Assembly (NCBI GenBank): GCA_010094025.1
Contig: ML991795.1
Coordinates: 284,564-348,563 of the forward strand
Reading direction: 5' to 3'
Source: Viridothelium virens
Taxonomy: Eukaryota; Ascomycota; Dothideomycetes; Trypetheliales; Trypetheliaceae
DNA length: 64,000 bases
A program made the translations under genes and the position numbers. Positions 15,691-43,220 of the stretch are shown one piece after another (the first letter of the stretch is position 1; every line of letters begins with the position of its first letter). The notes under the pieces are model-generated. The model was not told the DNA's origin. It worked only from the letters and a program-made list of their open reading frames with translations, and made no database searches.

Positions 15691-15893
15691 TAAGGTACCT
15701 TACCGCGGAGGGGGGGTTCCTCAACTGGTAATTAATACAGTGTTATTTGAACTTTACTGTTGTGACCATGTTGACCCATGTTAATACCGCCTTAACATGG
15801 GCCAATGTGGTCATACCAGTAAAGTTGAATTGACATTGTATTAATTGCTCCATACCAGTTGAGGAACCCCCCAAGCGCGGTAGGGTAAGGTTT
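15691..15893. mobile_element. Foldback MITE of about 200 bp with long terminal inverted repeats
   Basis: The left arm (GGGGGGTTCCTCAACTGGT, then ATTAATACAGTG and GAACTTTACTG) is matched by the reverse complement of the right arm (ACCAGTTGAGGAACCCCCC preceded by CATTGTATTAAT). The arms extend outwards to an ACCTTACC...CCGCG sequence at both ends and inwards to TTAACATGGG near 15788. The right arm holds about 8 extra bases (ATGGAGCA-like) relative to the left. Both ends are near TA dinucleotides. There is no coding capacity. This is the structure of a non-autonomous DNA transposon that can fold into a hairpin. Confidence 0.8.
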
Positions 15894-16141: not shown

Positions 16142-19100
16142 ATGGACCCGCTATCGCTTGCAGGTGCCATCATCTCCTTCTCAGGATTTGCCGGGTAAGT
16201 TTTGGAAGGAATTCAATCTCTATGTCATTTCCTCGCGAAAGTCAAGGATGCTCCTCATGACATTCAACGCCTCTCCCACGAGCTCCAAAACTTACGACAG
16301 TCACTTCAAGACACTCAAGACTGTCAAAAAGCAGCACAGACTGTGCATCCAGCTCTAGTAGACGCTGCAAAGCTCTGCCGCGACGTGGTGAGCCCTTTGT
16401 GTATCAGAATTAGTCGTTATGAAAAAAGTCTCTCTTCTGGCAATATGACGCGGCAATGGGCAAGAGTCAAATCCGCATTTACGGAAGTGAAAACCAGCAA
16501 GATGATCGAGGACGTACAGCGCGCCCGAACTACTCTGCTGGACGCAAGGATGATGCAACTGCATGCCGACACATCCAAAAATTTTCGGCAACAAGCAGGG
16601 CTCTCAAATCTTGCATTGTCTCGACTTGAAAATCTATCTACCGGTGTCAAGTCAGTGTCTATCTCAACCTCTCAACACACACTACTCGCGGATGAAACAA
16701 GGCAAGCCGCTACAAAAACATCAAATACAGTGGAAAGGCAATTGCTACCGGTGATTCACAGCATGCAACGACAGCTGCAAGATAGTGAAGCACGTATAGC
16801 AACAGTCAGCGAGGATATACAGCATCTTCGAGCAGGCCAAGAGACCAACAGCGCCATTCTTAGTAGCACTTTCAATGTAACTAGAGCGAACATTGATCAG
16901 ATGGAATCTGCCATGGGAACTTTACCCCAACTGCTGATCGACATGAAAGGTGTCAAATCTTCTGTGCACAAAGTACTTCAGCATCAACGGACCTCTGAAA
17001 CCCTCGTTGATGCTGCCTTTGAGAAAGCAGTTAGTATAGCAGTTACAAATGCTTTGTCTCAGCCTGCGCTTGACTCTCCCATGGACCGGGGTTTGTCGAC
17101 ATCTCGTGTTGAGCCTGGTCACAACGGGGTCCGAAAGAAGCTTCTGTACTCGTATAGCAAGGCCTATTGGTTTGGTTATCTATCCGCAATGTCAACCCGG
17201 ACAGCGACTGGCACAGATGATCACGGCAACCTTTCCTTCACTATATCTACGGACGTTATCTTCACTCCTGCCCGATGGGTCTCTCGATGGATAGCGCGAC
17301 TTGAATTGCTCAAGTGCCTATTCTCAACCCGGCTGAACACCTGGGTTATTAGGACCTCGAAGGTTTTAAAAGATGAAGATACCTCATTGCTGGCTAAGCT
17401 TCTATTACATGGGACTTCTGAGCAGTTTCAGAGCGTTGTGCGCAAACGAGATATCCGTCCCAACGATCTTATCTTATCCAATGATGACGGGATCAGTTTG
17501 CTCCAAGTGTGCGTGGACTGGCTCTCCATTGTGGGCCTTGACTCGGATGAATTTATTGATGATAAGGCATCCGAGTTTGTACACGAGCAATTCTCACCGT
17601 TCGGAAGCCTGGAGGGAGCTAAATATGCCATTAAGCGCGATATTATTCCTCACCGCGCCGAAGTTGTGAAAAGAATTGGAGAGACATGTTTATGGCTTCT
17701 AGACTACGACACCTGTGGAGCCATATCTTGGTGAGCTTCAAGTCCACTTTCCTTACCACTTGTGACTACTGTTCCGTAGCCTCTGAGAATTAGGCGTGTC
17801 ACTAGATGAGTTATAATTAAATTTATCTCCAGGTAATTCGCTAACAGCGTTCTGCAGGGTCCCTTGCTTGATCGCCGAATTAGTGAGTCTTTTCGACGAT
17901 TTCGACGACCCGAGCAAGCAAACTATTTTTTCAACCATCTTTTCTCGACTTTCCATGGTTTCCTCTGGCAATCCTTTTCATGGCTTTACAAATCCGAGGG
18001 AGTACATCTATCTTGATGATCTTGTCGAATTAGCTCTTCGAGGTACGAGCCGAGAGTCTCAATGTATCGAACTCCTTGCGATCCTACACTCCATTTGGAA
18101 TTCAACGGCCTACTGCAATTTGGATGAATCGCTGGCATGCTCTAACATTTTCGATGTCCCAATAGACGAGGAAATTTGTTACAATCGCACAAGAACCCTA
18201 GCGAAAAGTGCCACTTCCAGCAAAATCTGGCTTGCAGGCGATGTAAATTAGACTGCCCTGATGCACCAGTTGGTGTTCGAAATAATCCGGGGGGCACTTG
18301 CAGTATCTAGCCCATTATCAAGAATGCCCTTCCACAAGTTCTTCCACGTTGAAGACTCGGCCCACGTACCCTTTCCACATTTGATTTGGATGGGACCGCC
18401 CCGAATTAGGTTTCACGCCTTGACGGCAAGAAACATATCGAAGATTCTTGAGATAGACCACGATGTGGTATTGACCAACAATGGAGTGGATTTAAGCCTG
18501 ACAGCGGCACAGTGGCACGTCCTCGACGTCTGGGCCGCCGCATTGGCCCTTCATGGGCTTCAGCCAGGTATCATCCTACCGCCCACACTGAATACTCTCA
18601 TTCGAACGGAATACAACCCACTAGCATATACAAGCACTGCTGATGGAGCCTTTGTTGCGGTCTGTAGTGAATGTGATATGGGGAAAGTATGTCTCGTGAT
18701 GAACGAGATTCGAAATAAGCCTCCGAGTGGGATCCTGGAGGATTGTAGGCTACGTGAAGGCGAAATGGATGAGGAATGGTGGGAGGCAGAGGCCGAACTA
18801 ATTCAGAAAACTAACAACTACCTCACAGGATTGACCCGTGATTGGCAGCATAGAACCCGCCGCGATAGCAACGGTCGTGGTGTGCACTGCCAAATCAAGA
18901 CTTCTCCTGTCGAAGTGATTCATAACACGCCTGAAAATCATTTGACGAATGGTTTGGTGAAGGAAGACTTTTGGAACCGCCCGGCTGAGAATACATACGA
19001 GCTCCGACCGCTCAGCGATGGAGGAATTGAATTATTCATTGAGATAGATGACGTTGATGCGCCTTGGGAGACCCTCCGCCAAAACACTAGATCTGAAGGG

Positions 19101-37746: not shown

Positions 37747-38343
37747 AAGATATTAGCAGAAGGATTTCCCTTTCGGGGTTCTAGTCATTAAAAATCCAGA
37801 GGCAGAGAGGAAGTCTCGGATCCTGGGGGTAGCTGACACTCGAAATGATAAGAGCAGACAGATAGCAGCTTACCAGGCATCCCTTTGGCTAGAATCTCAT
37901 CAATCCGACTGCTCGGCCTTGGGGATATCGTGTCTAGTGATAGCACCTCGCTTAGGCTTGAGCCCAAGGCGCCAATAATGTCTCGTTGCTCGCCTATGTC
38001 CTTAATTTTCTTCTTTTGTGCAAAGTCGAAGACCCTGTATCAATATCATCTCTGAGTTCCTCGTTAAACACTAAGCCTGTTGTAGCAATACAGTAGACAC
38101 CTCAAACCAGTCTCCGAGTTGTCATCGTGTCTCCAATGCGTACTCGGGAAAAGAAAGATAGGTAGATCATAGGAAGGTCAAGCACTTGTATCCCGGGTAT
38201 CTTCGACTGGAGGATTCAGCTGGCACATCTCTTCCTTCAGTTTATTGCGAATAACACCCTATTGTCCTAACGTTCATTATCGCTTTTCACTCGTATCTCA
38301 ACCCCCTTTCATTTCCAACCATTAAGTATCTTCAAGGTAGAGA
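37747..38343. other. Intergenic, no gene seen
   Basis: Contains the synthetase 3' UTR. No open frame of interest and no repeat were seen. Confidence 0.5.
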
Positions 38344-38602
38344 GTGTGTGAGGGTGTTAAGCATCTAGCACCTCTATCATCAACCGAACACACTCAACTA
38401 TTGGTTCAATAGCTTCATCGCCGCAATCTTTCCGTTTCTGCGTAAAAGCGACGTTGTTCATGCTGGTCAGCGTTCCGGGATACTCTTCGCCTAGCTCCCT
38501 CAGGTGTCGCCGAACTGTGAGCCGCCTTGGTGGACATGCGTGTCGCGAGGCTGCAGGCCTGGTGGACTGGGGTGCGCGCCCGCAGCTCACTGCGCTTGAT
38601 CC
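38344..38602 (-). pseudogene. Relic of a second amyloid-motif NLR: N-terminal motif region joined to the last TPR, NB-ARC missing
   Basis: ATG at 38602-38600 starts MDQAQ, stop (TGA), AAGAHPSPPGLQPRDTHVHQ and GGSQFGDT, stop (TGA). This aligns with the NLR at 40457: MEPVQ, QAAGARFTVQSLPPHDTQIH and QAGSCFGDTQ. A few bases later and in another frame comes a TPR of the kinesin-light-chain type, LGEEYPGTLTSMNNVAFTQK with VECVRLMIEVLDA, ending at TAA 38357; after that stop HPHTLST still resembles a following TPR helix. The P-loop, the rest of NB-ARC and nearly all TPRs are deleted. It sits on the minus strand just downstream of the SesB-type gene. It cannot be functional but shows that the locus once held two such receptors. 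Confidence 0.7.
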
Positions 38603-38883
38603 ATGTCGGACAGTAAATAGCGTCTGAGGCTCGAAGAATGGATGCCGTCATCTTCAGCGTTTTTGCCTCTGCAGGCTGTCTAAATGCGCGAGATTGAGAT
38701 GCTGGCGCACGCGAGGCGCAGGATGAGCGCAACGATTGGTTGGCGCTGCTGTGTTGATCTCACGCACAAGTAACGAGGTGATTTGAATCGATTTTATCAT
38801 CATCGGGCTGTATTGCATACAGACCCGCAATGTATGTTGTGCACGGAGAAAATCGTTCTGATCCTCTTGATAAATGCCTGCTC
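38603..38883. other. Short spacer, no gene
   Basis: Spacer between the NLR relic and the 3' end of the SesB-type gene. Nothing recognised. Confidence 0.4.
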
Positions 38884-40193
38884 TTAGAAGCTGCCGCTGC
38901 CTTGTCCGGCGTAGTTCCCCTGAAATAGCGAGCCCCCGCTCACCGTAGTTGATCCAGTAAACCTTGAGCCTCCTTGAGTTATCCTAAGTACTTGTCTTTC
39001 TTCTCCCTCTCTTGATGCGCTTTCCGCAGTATCTGCAGAAGAATTGGTCAATGCCGTTCCAGCTGGATGCAAAGCCTTCACCCATCGATGAAGCTCTCCT
39101 ACAACAGCCTTGAAACCTGGGTCATCTGCGTCATTGAATTTCGTCATATCCATATGGTTCGCATGTATACCGATTGGAATATATCCAGGTAATATGGCGG
39201 AATGTGATGGAACGACCTGGAGTTTGTCAGCCTGGCATATATTGCATAATTTATATCCCTTCACATACAATACCCACACCTCGCAATGGCAATTCCTCGT
39301 AGAAACATGTGATATGGATTGGTTGATATTCATCTTGATTTCGTGCTCTTATCATAGTATGAAAACTGTCCTGTATCCGTGCAAGAACCTCAGAGTCGCT
39401 TTCGAGTACTTCGACAATCCGAGAGTTTGCCTGCTTCACGAGACCCATGACTTTTGCCAGCTTTTCGGCCCATGACGCGAGGCCAGAGCCGTGGTGAGGC
39501 GTTCCGAGAAATATAATGCCTCGTGCATATTGCAGAATGTTTTGCAGATGCCTTTCCGGTCGCTGTCGCGCTGTTACAAGGGCCTATCGTGACTGTAAGC
39601 CAAGTACAGTTATCATGGCAGCTTAACCTACGTCTTCACAAATGAGGCCCCCCAGACTATGGCATACAAATAGCAAAGGTCGGTCATTCTGCGACAGTCA
39701 GCCCAACAACTCGAACGAGTGCGTATAGGACCCGACTGTATCGTCCTCTTCTCTGTACGTCGCAAGAGCCGTAAGGAGATTCGTAGCATGGTTTCCAGTG
39801 GTGTTCTTTGACACCAGTCCTCGCCAGTCCGTGACATTAGCGTCATATCCGAATGCGAGAATGCGAGCGCTTTTGATCTTGCTAGGCAGCAAGGCTTGCG
39901 GCCATGGTTTCGAGGCGTGCTTTGCGGTTCAGGTCCTCTCACGATCGCCCGTCAGACCGTGGATAAAAACAATGCTATGGAGTAGCAGAACCGGTGAGTT
40001 GGATGGTGTATTTAGAAAAGTCCGAATCCTTGTGTGGCATGAGTGAGCATGGAGTTCCCGTAACTTACTCTACTACACTCTCTTCGGCGTCATGAAGGAG
40101 CTTGACCCCTGCCGGCGAAGCGTCGGCAGAACCAACAATGTCGCTTGTGGGGCTCTTCGCTCCCCGGCTTAAGCTTTTCAACCAAGACGTCAT
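38884..40193 (-). pseudogene. SesB-type lipase-like effector with C-terminal amyloid motif; two stops and a frameshift
   Basis: Exons read 40193-40069, 39974-39633, 39583-39269 and 39216-38884, with introns of 94, 49 and 52 nt. The alpha/beta hydrolase domain is recognisable by IVFIHGLTGDRERT, ILAFGYDANVTDWRG, the elbow region CHSLGG, IIFLGTPHHGSGLASWAEK and the catalytic His block GIHANHMDMTKF. After a linker the C terminus carries GGSRFTGSTTVSGGSLFQGN followed by YAG, the putative amyloid signalling motif. Lesions: TGA at 39929-39931 where Trp is usual, TGA at 39698-39700, and one G too few in the run at 39649-39653, which shifts frame inside the nucleophile elbow. Family members are cell-death or defence effectors triggered by a partner NLR. 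It is divergent from that NLR with 263 bp between starts. Confidence 0.75.
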
Positions 40194-40456
40194 CTTGACC
40201 GCCGGAGGACTTGCAACTTCGAGAGTCAAAGTATGATTGCTAGAAGATCAAAGCAATTTGGACGCTTACCTGTTCTTAACGCGTTCAAGCAACATCCACC
40301 CCAGCTGCACAGCATGAAGCTATTCCGCCACGTAGACCAATCGACGCACTCCTCCAGCGCCATGCAGGCGCCCGGATCTTAGCCTCGCGCATATCCTCCA
40401 GAGATCATGATGCTGAGCACGATGGCATCTCTTCTTCGAGCTTCGTATCGTCCTAT
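40194..40456. promoter_or_regulatory. Shared divergent promoter between the lipase-like effector and the NB-ARC/TPR receptor
   Basis: 263 bp separate the two start codons, so both genes must be driven from here. The frame of the receptor's first exon is open further back to about 40277, but no upstream ATG exists in it. No specific operator was identified. Confidence 0.5.
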
Positions 40457-42019
40457 ATGGAGCCGGTTCAGCAAGCTGCTGGTGCGCGGTTCACTGTACA
40501 AAGCTTGCCGCCTCATGACACCCAGATACACCAAGCTGGCTCGTGTTTCGGAGATACTCAGGTAATGGGCGGCCCCATCTTCCAAGGCAACTTCGTTGGC
40601 CTTCCTGTCAGTTAGTATCTCTCCATTGTCACAGCGCTGGCTCGACTGCTTAGCACACGTAGACCCTGCAATCGCGGCCCGGCCCGACTACCTGGGACAC
40701 TTCTCCAACTCCTCGCTGGCGCCAGTCAAAGCATTTATCCCTCGAGTCCTCCTCCGCGATCAAATCCGGGCACAGCTCTGCGACGGCGAGGCAAACGGAA
40801 CTACAAGCATGCTAGCTGTGTGGGGACTTGGAGGTGCTGGAAAGACGCAACTTGTGCTGGACTATGTGCAGCAGTATCGGAGGCAGTACAAGGCGACGTT
40901 CTGGATAGAGGCTGGGCAGAAGGAGTCGCTCGAGCGTGACTTTGTCAACCTCTATCAGACGCTGTTTGGAGAGCACAATGGTGCTGGTCAGGAGACGATT
41001 AGCGTGGATAAAGCTGTGACGGCAGTGAAGAGCTGGTTCTCTGGGCGACAAGGGCCATGGCTGTTTGTATTTGACGGCGCGGATGCGATCGACGACGAGA
41101 AGGCCAAGGGGTACATTGCCATCAAACACTTCATTCCGGACATACCTTCTTTGCATGTCGTTATCACGACTCGAACCGGAGCGGCGAAGGGCATGACCCG
41201 GCTGGGCGGCGTACAAGTAGGTGACATGGAAGAGGTACAGGCTATTGACCTATTTTGTAGATGCTCTGAAGTACAACGCGACGACGGAAGTATCGAGGAA
41301 GTCAAGGCGATTGTCAGAGAGCTTGGGTATCTGGCGCTGGCCATCACACTTGCTGGCACGTACGTAGGCACAACTCCCCGTCTACAATTTGACATTAAGG
41401 CATATCTTCCTGAGTATCGACAGCGCCGGCGCGAATTACTCAAACGAAAACCGGAGAGTATACTGCATCAGTACAGCGAGAGCGTGTTGACAACATGGGA
41501 GACGTCATACCAAGCTATTTCTGATAGTGATTACCCAGAGGCGGCGGATATCATGACAATGCTATCGTTCCTAAGCTCCGACGATATATTTCTACAATTA
41601 TTCAATACAGGCCTTCAGACGTCAGCCAAAGCAATGTCGCACATGGATATATATAAGATCGAGGACTGCTTCAGGATATTGGAAAAGTACTCATTTTTGC
41701 AGTGGAAGAAGGATCAAGCAAGCTTCGCGATGCATAAGTTGGTACACGCCTGGGGCTTTGACAGGCTCGAAGAATCTAAGCAGTCGTCATTCAGTATCAC
41801 TGTGCTCAAGCTTATGGCGGCAGCAATTACAGGGTGTAGCAGTTGGCCAGACGACAAGCTTCGACTAGTACCACATGTGATGGCGAACTTTTATACGGTA
41901 GCTCAGCCTGGGTATATATCAAATAGGATTGGAGAGGAAATTGTTGATGACATTGAAAGTCTGGCGCTATTTCTAGCAGAGATTGGCTGGACTCGTGAAG
42001 AGCAGATGCTTAAGGAGTT

Positions 42020-43085
42020 TGTTCTGAGTAAGCGTAAGCAGATAGTTGGCGAGGAGCATCCCGACACTATGCGTGCCTTGGATGAGCTCGCTATTACACT
42101 CCGTCTCCAAGGCCATCTCTCAGAGGCAGCTCAGATACAGAGGGANNNNNNNNNNNNNNNNNNNNNNNNNNNNNNNNNNNNNNNNNNNNNNNNNNNNNNN
42201 NNNNNNNNNNNNNNNNNNNNNNNNNNNNNNNNNNNNNNNNNNNNNNNNNNNNNNNNNNNNGTACTAGAGAAGAGGAGGCGGATCCTCGGCGAGGAGCACC
42301 CCCATACAATCGTTACGATGCATAACCTTGCTGTTACACTTGGAGACCATGGCCATCTCTCAGAGGCAGCTCGGATACAGAGGGAAGTACTAGGGAAGTG
42401 GAAGCTGATCCTTGGCGAGGAGCACCTCAATACGATCCTTACGATGCATAACCTCGCCGTTACACTTGGAGACCAAGGCCATCTCTCCGAGGCAGCTCGG
42501 ATGCAGAGGGAAGTACTAGAGAAGTGGAGGTTGATCCTTGGTGAGGAGCACCCCGATACGATCCTTACGATGCATAACCTCGCTGTTACACTTCGTCGCC
42601 AAGGCCATCTCTCAGAGGCAGCTCAGATACATAGGGAAGTATTAGAGAAGAGGAGGCAAATCCTTGGTGAGGAGCATCCTGACACAATAAGTACAACAAG
42701 CCACCTTGCTACAACGCTCCATTACCAAGGCTATTCATCAGAGGCGGTTCAGACGCACAGGGAAGTGCTAGAAAAGAGCAGGCGGATCCTCGGTGAGGAG
42801 CATCCCTATACACTAACTATAATGAAAAATCTCGCCGTCACGCTCCACAATCAAGGCTATTTATCAGAGGCGATTCAGATGCACAGGGAAGTGCTAGAAA
42901 ACAGAAGGCGGATCCTCGGTGAGGAGCATCCCCATACAATAAATACAATGAACAATCTCGCCGTCACACTCGACAGGTAAGGGTGTCTTTCAGAGGTAAT
43001 CTCCCTTCTAGAAATCGCCCTGCGAAAGATGTAGGAGATGTTCGGCGATGAGCATCCGCACGTGAAAATGATACTGGACAATCTT
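42020..43085 (+). repeat. 126-nt TPR tandem repeats (42 codons each)
   Basis: Units share REVLEK.R.ILGEEHPDT with a second helix TMHNLAVTL..QGHLSEAA. The unit length is 126 nt, seen for example between successive GGGAAGTACTAGAGAAG starts. Central units are more alike than the outer ones. The TPR type is that of kinesin light chain, typical of fungal NLR sensor domains. Confidence 0.9.
42146..42260. other. Assembly gap of 115 N inside the TPR array
   Basis: The flanking bases AGGGA and GTACTAG are one base short of a perfect unit junction, so a true gap of 1 plus a multiple of 126 nt is expected rather than 115. The real unit number is unknown. Confidence 0.9.
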
Positions 43086-43220
43086 GCAGGTTCTACAGAC
43101 CGAGGCTATTAGGAAATGTTGGCAGACGGGGAGAAGGAGAGCAAGAAAGCTTCACTGTATAGACATTTGAAGGCAGTAATCCGAAAGGGCCGGCGAGATA
43201 GAAATGATCAGGTAATATAG

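What the first reader, a model, noticed from the sequence alone, without database searches (positions are those of the whole stretch)
38884..43220. Divergent lipase/NLR gene pair sharing a FQGN-type amyloid signalling motif
Seen: the minus-strand SesB-type protein ends with GGSRFTGSTTVSGGSLFQGN plus YAG, and the divergent NB-ARC/TPR protein starts with QAGSCFGDTQVMGGPIFQGN plus FVG. The two align as G-S-x-F-x...T-x-V-x-G-G-x-[LI]-F-Q-G-N-[YF]-x-G with one gap, while the rest of the proteins are unrelated. Known: fungal NLRs can carry an N-terminal prion-forming motif that templates a matching motif on an effector encoded next to them; the PP-motif trio HELLP/SBP/PNT1 of Chaetomium globosum includes exactly a lipase-like SBP and an NB-ARC/TPR PNT1. 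Inference: this is a PP-type or closely related pair. No HELLP-like gene is seen beside it.
Basis: partly seen in the sequence, partly recalled or inferred. Interest (0 to 1): 0.85.

Follow-up and report, generated by a model that had tools for sequence, protein, structure and literature searches.

The report
New fungal receptor–lipase amyloid-type motif pair
In a lichen fungus, an immune-type receptor and a neighbouring lipase carry the same short sticky-looking tag, apparently a new family of the amyloid tags by which fungal receptors are thought to switch on cell-death enzymes, although the lipase copy in this strain looks broken.

Summary
In Viridothelium virens (lichen-forming Dothideomycete), a SesB-type lipase (minus, 38884-40193) and a divergent NB-ARC/TPR NLR (plus, 40457-42980) share a ~25-residue motif, roughly I-x-Q-x-G-S-x-F ... 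T-x-V-x-G-G-x-[LIV]-F-Q-G-N-[FY]-x-G. A coding pattern for its second half occurs twice in the 30.7-Mb genome, both times here. It is a conserved family: a profile built only from lipase C-termini finds 20 of 121 NLR N-termini above the best of 12,100 shuffles; the reverse profile finds 9 of 121 lipase C-termini; profile-profile P=5.5e-16. In Trichoglossum hirsutum the pair has consecutive locus tags.

'PP-type' fails: 0 of 10 lipase and 0 of 20 NLR motifs have the PP core, the PP Pfam profile does not match the window motifs, and a real PP pair (HeLo protein/NLR) lies elsewhere in this genome. Sigma, PUASM, HET-s and GDQN definitions are not met either. Best reading: an undescribed fungal amyloid signalling motif by which an oligomerised NLR templates a SesB lipase. 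Amyloid formation is untested. The lipase here has one premature stop (codon 57); a deleted NLR relic lies on its other side.

The parts
38884..40193 (-). SesB-type lipase gene (alpha/beta hydrolase); exons 40193-40069, 39974-39737, 39688-39632, 39583-39269, 39216-38884; 355 codons with one premature stop
   Evidence: GT-AG introns chosen to match intact relatives; 75% identity to P0002 Trypethelium subeluteriae; model of relative P0006 folds as alpha/beta hydrolase
38905..38982 (-). effector-side motif ITQGGSRFTGSTTVSGGSLFQGNYAG at the lipase C-terminus
   Evidence: the same motif ends 9 relatives, incl. the looser P0081
39929..39931 (-). premature in-frame stop (TGA, codon 57) in the lipase; the 8 of 11 aligned relatives that cover the position read through
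40457..42980 (+). NLR gene: motif / NB-ARC / TPR; exon 1 40457-40610, exon 2 40654-42980; divergent to the lipase, 263 bases between the two start codons
   Evidence: NCBI model P0123 uses the same first intron
40526..40600 (+). receptor-side motif IHQAGSCFGDTQVMGGPIFQGNFVG, NLR residues 24-48
40611..40653 (+). 43-nt intron that joins the motif exon to the NB-ARC exon
   Evidence: frame and GT-AG sites; same junction LPV-THV in P0123
40761..41360 (+). NB-ARC domain
   Evidence: PF00931 4.7e-05, 23.2 bits (cut-off 23.5), and NACHT 4.8e-05, 23.7 bits (cut-off 26.7)
42261..42977 (+). TPR array (42-residue repeats)
   Evidence: PF13374 9.3e-62, PF13424 3e-47
38315..38745 (-). relic of a second NLR on the other side of the lipase: 5' exon with the first half of the motif joined to TPR-tail sequence, with stops

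Best explanation
This is a two-gene NLR/effector signalling cassette. The NLR (short N-terminal motif, NB-ARC, TPR) lacks an effector domain of its own; the divergent neighbour is a SesB-type alpha/beta-hydrolase with the matching motif on a disordered C-terminal tail. Shown here: motif homology between the two proteins, its conservation across ascomycete genera, clustering in two to three species, the domain architectures, and its failure to match the published fungal amyloid-motif definitions that I could test. Inferred: ligand binding to the TPRs makes the NLR oligomerise; its clustered motifs nucleate a beta-arch/amyloid fold that templates the lipase tails; the gathered or activated lipase attacks membrane lipids and drives regulated cell death or another defence. 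It works like the HET-S/NWD2, HELLP/PNT1 and sigma (SesB/HET-eN) systems, but through its own motif family. In this V. virens assembly the lipase reading frame is interrupted once, so the cassette is probably impaired in this strain unless that base is a sequencing error.
For: Lipase-only HMM (10 sequences, the window's included) scores 20 of 121 NLR N-terminal windows above the best of 12,100 shuffles (11.4 bits), top 38.4 bits; NLR-only HMM (20 sequences) scores 9 of 121 lipase C-termini, the window's included, above the best of 12,100 shuffles (14.2 bits), top 38.4; hhalign 98.6%, P 5.5e-16. In 9 lipases mean pairwise identity is 77% in the hydrolase domain, 21% in the linker and 72% in the motif: the motif is kept while the linker drifts. 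In T. eluteriae the NLR model P0122 begins with the plus-strand reading across the lipase's start exon (window 40138-40230), so that DNA, and probably the divergent layout, persists there. Cenococcum P0224 fuses a lipase 73.5% identical to this one to an NB-ARC/TPR NLR 43% identical to this one: the in-cis alternative described for such systems (PMC3321046, passages). Motif composition is G-, N/Q-, S/T-rich and low in charge compared with the hydrolase domain. The P0006 model has a confident hydrolase core and a tail at pLDDT<50.
Against: No fibril, seeding or cell-death experiment on this motif is known to me. The lipase here has a premature stop. 15 of 34 NLR windows taken as N-terminally complete do not reach 11.4 bits. 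Only one other species gave two motif-bearing genes with consecutive tags. The NB-ARC score is just under Pfam's cut-off.
Confidence: 0.74

Rival explanations
1. The pair is a PP-motif (fungal RHIM) system, i.e. a PNT1/SBP-like pair without HELLP.
For: Same architecture as C. globosum SBP (lipase; PMC7885112 passages) and PNT1 (PP-NB-ARC-TPR; PMC12881547 passages); short Q/G/N motif.
Against: No G-phi-Q-phi-G core in any of 10 + 20 motifs; no PF17046 match at E<=10 in the window motifs or in 5 relatives at E<=1, while the same profile finds P0011 and a genuine PP pair in this genome; my two HMMs give at most 0.9 bits to those PP motifs. The motif lies at NLR residues 24-48, while PP motifs mostly lie at positions 5-9 (PMC9815663 section 19).
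Confidence: 0.04
2. The shared motif is a homotypic docking or beta-solenoid adhesion module that recruits the lipase to the NLR without amyloid templating.
For: Sequence alone cannot show amyloid; the tail weakly resembles the PATR beta-helix repeat (16.7 bits, below the 27-bit cut-off; 14.6 in P0098).
Against: The fungal NLR N-terminus/effector C-terminus motifs that I know to have been tested (recalled; PMC7885112 abstract) behave as amyloids; the composition fits.
Confidence: 0.15
3. The cassette is dead or decaying in this strain: premature stop in the lipase, an internally deleted NLR relic beside it, and a lipase-tail relic on another contig.
For: Stop at codon 57; relic NLR 38315-38745; relic tail C128:21696-21812 with a stop. 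Not exclusive with the best explanation for the family.
Against: Splice sites, the HSLGG and NHMDM segments and the motif are otherwise kept and collinear with intact relatives; a single-base assembly error is possible; the NLR frame is open to the same end as in T. eluteriae.
Confidence: 0.5
4. The similarity arose by a recent local duplication or gene conversion between neighbours and has no signalling meaning.
For: The genes are adjacent.
Against: 46 of 75 bases identical only; each side is conserved with its own orthologues in other genera.
Confidence: 0.02

Closest known systems
HELLP/SBP/PNT1 (PP motif; Chaetomium globosum, Podospora anserina)
   Same: NB-ARC/TPR NLR with an N-terminal motif matched at the C-terminus of a neighbouring lipase (SBP)
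   Different: PP core absent; motif lies further into the NLR; no HeLo-like partner with the motif found; V. virens has a separate PP pair (HeLo protein and NLR) on contig C24
sigma system (SesA/SesB/HET-eN, Nectria haematococca)
   Same: SesB lipase with a C-terminal motif shared with an NLR N-terminus; motif not at the extreme N-terminus of the NLR
   Different: sigma repeats GxGxQFNxx / GGTQNINT three times over ~40 residues; none of the 30 motifs here has the GxGxQFN or GGTQN cores; NACHT/ankyrin NLR in the type system; no SesA found with this motif
HET-S/NWD2 (HRAM motifs)
   Same: divergent two-gene layout, short motif, split effector/NLR
   Different: no HET-s Pfam match seen; effector is HeLo with the motif doubled; here a single motif and a lipase
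PUASM and GDQN motifs (PMC9815663; PMC12261475)
   Same: recently added families of paired NLR/effector motifs
   Different: FxGxGxQxxGxGxF and NxxxGxQYxxxGxGDQNxVSxxxxQxN patterns absent; PNP_UDP or SesA effectors
NLR34 (unassigned ascomycete motif, 28 residues, 29 NLRs, PMC9815663 Table 1)
   Same: could conceivably be the same NLR-side motif
   Different: its logo is only in a figure that I could not see; that study found no effector or neighbour carrying it, whereas this motif has a lipase partner

Membership tests
PP motif (fungal RHIM) | FxGx(x)NxGLQLxGxNxGxL, core G-phi-Q-phi-G | tested here: not met
   0 of 10 effector and 0 of 20 NLR motifs
PP motif (fungal RHIM) | match to PF17046 (Ses_B, the PP profile) | tested here: not met
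   no match in window motifs at E<=10 or in P0002, P0003, P0006, P0098, P0126 at E<=1; for P0125 and P0129 only the best 25 families were shown, without it; positive controls P0011 and the C24 pair
PP system | HeLo or HeLo-like partner with the same motif | tested here: not met
   further genome matches to either motif were only relics of an NLR and of a lipase tail; short-query searches, so a diverged copy could be missed
sigma motif | three repeats of GxGxQFNxx and/or GGTQNINT | tested here: not met
   cores GxGxQFN and GGTQN in 0 of 10 and 0 of 20; PF17106 gave no match to the window motifs, but no positive control rang
HRAM (HET-s motif) | Pfam HET-s profile match; 21-residue repeat with N ladder | tested here: not met
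   no HET-s Pfam family for the window motifs at E<=10 or among families shown for 7 relatives; no positive control run; the repeat pattern itself was not scored
PUASM | FxGxGxQxxGxGxF with PNP_UDP effector | tested here: not met
   0 of 10 and 0 of 20
GDQN motif | NxxxGxQYxxxGxGDQNxVSxxxxQxN | tested here: not met
   0 of 10 and 0 of 20
NLR-associated amyloid signalling pair (general kind) | same motif at NLR N-terminus and effector C-terminus of neighbouring genes | tested here: met
   window; T. hirsutum pair; HMM cross-detection
NLR-associated amyloid signalling pair (general kind) | motif forms amyloid/prion and activates the effector | not testable with these tools
   needs ThT, foci, seeding and cell-death assays
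SesB-type lipase | alpha/beta hydrolase fold with a nucleophile-elbow serine | tested here: met
   fold of P0006; HSLGG in the window and 7 of 9 motif-bearing relatives (the other two gene models skip that stretch)

The most novel reading that the evidence does not exclude
A previously undescribed family of fungal amyloid signalling motif (G-S-x-F ... G-G-x-[LIV]-F-Q-G-N), present in NB-ARC/TPR NLRs of Dothideomycetes, Geoglossomycetes, Chaetothyriales and lichenised Lecanoromycetes (class placements recalled). It controls a SesB-type lipase as its only detected partner, i.e. an amyloid-gated phospholipase death switch without a pore-forming HeLo partner, with a gene-fused (motif-free) form of the same receptor and lipase in Cenococcum.
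Probability: 0.6. Interest if true: 0.72.

Novelty: new variant of a known kind. Interest (0 to 1): 0.62.

Why it matters
Few fungal families of amyloid signalling motif are in print: PMC12261475 counts five FASS families and adds GDQN. A further family that pairs with a lipase gives an independent case for how short motifs with no common sequence converge on the same signalling job, and a test of whether a lipase alone, without a HeLo/MLKL-like pore former, can be an amyloid-gated executioner. The presence of a separate PP pair in the same genome makes a natural test of signalling insulation between amyloid motifs, and the Cenococcum fusion lets the in-cis and in-trans forms of one receptor/effector pair be compared.

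Tried and rejected
PP, sigma, PUASM, HET-s and GDQN membership: tested and not met, with the limits given in the membership table. Recent duplication: rejected. Two stops in the lipase: my first reading counted two; splicing against relatives placed one in an intron. I first took the PP effector on contig C24 for a HeLo-like (HELLP) protein; a Pfam scan made while checking this report shows a HeLo domain instead (PF14479, 186 bits).

A search for other effectors with the motif (P0003 residues 300-343) returned 1 protein (the query) among 2 candidates and missed P0004, which carries nearly the same tail; it has no power and says nothing. NACHT_sigma in the own genome rang nowhere, controls included, so absence of sigma systems is not shown. 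Searches of the paper library for five literal strings of the motif found 0 papers, and FQGN with amyloid and fungal found 0; a listing of 20 of 261 papers on amyloid signalling, NLRs and lipases since 2022 pointed to no other paper that I judged to bear on it. Figures and supplements are not covered, so NLR34 cannot be excluded. Adjacency in metagenome contigs or in Aaosphaeria and Glonium could not be examined. With so few proven pairs, within-pair co-evolution was not tested.
Full report
Where it is. The window lies on contig 25 (348,563 bases) of a 30.7-Mb, 175-contig fungal genome. The receptor hit from a contig of that same length is TPR-like protein P0123 of Viridothelium virens, 100% identical over 92% of the query, and contig C9 has the length of the contig of another V. 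virens record, P0048. So the organism is V. virens, Trypetheliales, a lichen former (recalled).

The observation. The minus-strand lipase ends in ITQGGSRFTGSTTVSGGSLFQGNYAGQGSGSF and the plus-strand receptor begins MEPVQQAAGARFTVQSLPPHDTQIHQAGSCFGDTQVMGGPIFQGNFVGLPV. A degenerate coding pattern for GG-x-x-FQGN occurs twice in the whole genome, both at this locus; the reversed control pattern occurs 0 times.

Gene models. Lipase: five exons, all introns GT-AG, placed so that the product aligns end to end with relatives; one premature TGA at codon 57, where the 8 of 11 aligned relatives that cover it read through. Receptor: ATG 40457, one 43-nt intron (40611-40653), NB-ARC and TPRs, stop at 42978-42980, with a 115-base N gap inside the TPR array. 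The public V. virens model uses the same junction after LPV but departs from mine at the end, splicing on to another tail; the T. eluteriae protein P0122 (98% identical to the searched region) ends at my stop and reads the first junction differently. The 13 motif residues before the public model's start are conserved in relatives whose own models include them, so the public start is probably too late.

A motif family. I inspected the C-termini of the 120 lipase homologues listed of 374 found, and the N-termini of the 120 NLR homologues listed of 368 found. Nine lipase records end in the motif: T. subeluteriae P0002, Tolypocladium P0005, Aaosphaeria P0006, Trichoglossum P0098, a looser Penicillium subrubescens P0081, and four unnamed metagenome proteins (P0003, P0004, P0009, P0068); Paraphaeosphaeria P0074 is cut off inside it. 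On the NLR side it, or a variant of it, is seen in Trypethelium, Mytilinidion, Trichoglossum, Geoglossum, Glonium, Periconia, Kalmusia, Didymella, Bipolaris, Boeremia, Fonsecaea, Exophiala, Lepraria and Teloschistes. The remaining listed lipases have other tails or none; Nemania P0008 has a tail that may be a diverged form (12.7 bits).

Tests against chance. An HMM from the 10 effector motifs (window included) was run on 121 NLR N-terminal windows (120 homologues plus the window): 20 exceed 11.4 bits, the best of 12,100 shuffled sequences; the top is 38.4 bits. One of the 20, P0123, is the window's own gene, so 19 are distinct. Of 34 windows taken as N-terminally complete 19 exceed that score and 15 do not. 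The reverse HMM from 20 NLR motifs was run on 121 lipase C-termini (120 plus the window): 9 exceed 14.2 bits, the best of 12,100 shuffles; P0081 (11.8) and all the others do not. hhalign of the two profiles gives 98.6% and P 5.5e-16. In 9 lipases the linker before the motif is 21% identical, the motif 72%, the hydrolase 77%; in 19 NLRs the stretch before the motif is 30%, the motif 58%, the NB-ARC region 56%. The 20 NLR motifs were picked by an FQGN-like anchor, so the NLR-side HMM is not a blind set; the effector-side test does not depend on that choice.

Pairing. T. hirsutum GP486_002572 (lipase) and GP486_002573 (NLR) have consecutive tags on contigs of the same length, 19,271. The T. eluteriae NLR model starts with the plus-strand reading of window 40138-40230, across the lipase start exon. 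For P0002, P0005 and P0081 no partner NLR is in the list. In Cenococcum P0224 the two proteins are one: residues 72-339 match the window lipase at 73.5% and 348-763 the NLR at 43%. Related NLRs also carry other effectors in cis: PNP_UDP in P0130 and SesA in P0168 and P0173 (precomputed Pfam).

Not PP. The PP consensus and the sigma repeats are printed in PMC3321046 (passages); PUASM in PMC9815663 (sections 19 and 24); GDQN in PMC12261475 (section 12). None of the 10+20 motifs meets any of them. PF17046 does not match the window motifs or five relatives at E<=1, and is not among the 25 families shown for two more. The same profile scores 42.0 and 28.7 bits on contig C24, where a HeLo-domain protein (PF14479, 186 bits) ending VFSGDHNSGLQIAHNIGTMSNTFNKGT and a divergent NLR with IEFSGSENQGLQVGCNATGGTIE have their motifs about 1 kb apart: a real PP pair in the same genome, of the HeLo/STAND kind described in PMC3321046. 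My two HMMs give these at most 0.9 bits.

Structure. AlphaFold2 of the relative P0006 with 50 sequences (mean pLDDT 77): a confident core between residues 11 and 282, weaker at 71-80, 151-190 and 221-240, and the motif tail below 50. Foldseek finds alpha/beta hydrolases (best a thioesterase domain, E 1.6e-8; also monoglyceride lipases and esterases) with modest TM-scores (0.32-0.45 by query length in the rows shown). A Ser (HSLGG), an acidic residue after strand 213-219 and the invariant His 249 of NHMDM are the likely triad (inference).

Turnover at the locus. On the other side of the lipase, 38315-38745 (minus), lies a relic of a second NLR: the 5' exon with HVHQGGSQFGDT joined to TPR-tail sequence, with stops. 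A relic of the lipase tail lies on contig C128 with a stop. The NLR has no close paralogue among the scored candidates; the next best in the genome is 34%. This fits the birth-and-death usual for fungal NLR genes (recalled).

How it probably works. By analogy with HET-S/NWD2 and HELLP/PNT1 (PMC7885112, abstract and passages), NLR oligomerisation brings motifs together, these adopt a beta-arch amyloid fold and template the lipase tails; the lipase then damages membranes. Every step from oligomerisation on is inference. In this strain the lipase is interrupted, so the observed cassette may be silent; intact copies exist in relatives.

Novelty. I found no printed sign of this motif: 0 papers for five motif strings, 0 for FQGN with amyloid and fungal, and no description in the parts that I read of PMC9815663 (outline, sections 19 and 24, passages), PMC12261475 (section 12, passages), PMC12258605, PMC12881547, PMC3321046 and PMC8086366 (passages) and PMC5485727 (section 7, passages). 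Motif NLR34 of PMC9815663 is an orphan whose logo I could not see. Hence 'new variant of a known kind'.

Noticed in passing
G000 contig C24:325299-326412 (L023, L024): A genuine PP-motif pair in this genome: HeLo-domain protein (PF14479) with a C-terminal PP motif and a divergent NLR with an N-terminal PP motif; the NLR match further on holds a TGA.
   Followed up: partly
window 16142-16471, plus strand: A gene beginning MDPLSLAGAIISFSGFAG with a sub-threshold PF17111 (HeLo-like) match, 25.1 bits against a cut-off of 27.2, about 22 kb from the pair; the DNA pattern of the motif is not in it.
   Followed up: partly
lipase homologues, C-termini: SesB-type lipases end in several other short G/N-rich tails that look like further motif classes, e.g. 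GTQKxVxGHYFEAxGDQNFGM, GITIWGNVVxSNVVNGSQTVNGDLxF and GGDVKIGNSEQNLSGNFYG.
   Followed up: no
P0224 Cenococcum geophilum, 1132 aa: Lipase and NB-ARC/TPR receptor of these two families fused in one protein, with a GITINS-like stretch between them.
   Followed up: partly
P0008 Nemania sp., C-terminus: A tail NASNFSGNYTMSGGNLALGNVMN that scores 12.7 bits with the effector HMM: perhaps a diverged member of the family.
   Followed up: no
window 15696-15887: Two nested inverted repeats (35 nt, 89%; 55 nt, 84% complementary), possibly a small foldback transposable element.
   Followed up: partly
window 42146-42260: 115 N inside the TPR array; the reading frame is open on both sides in the same frame.
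   Followed up: no
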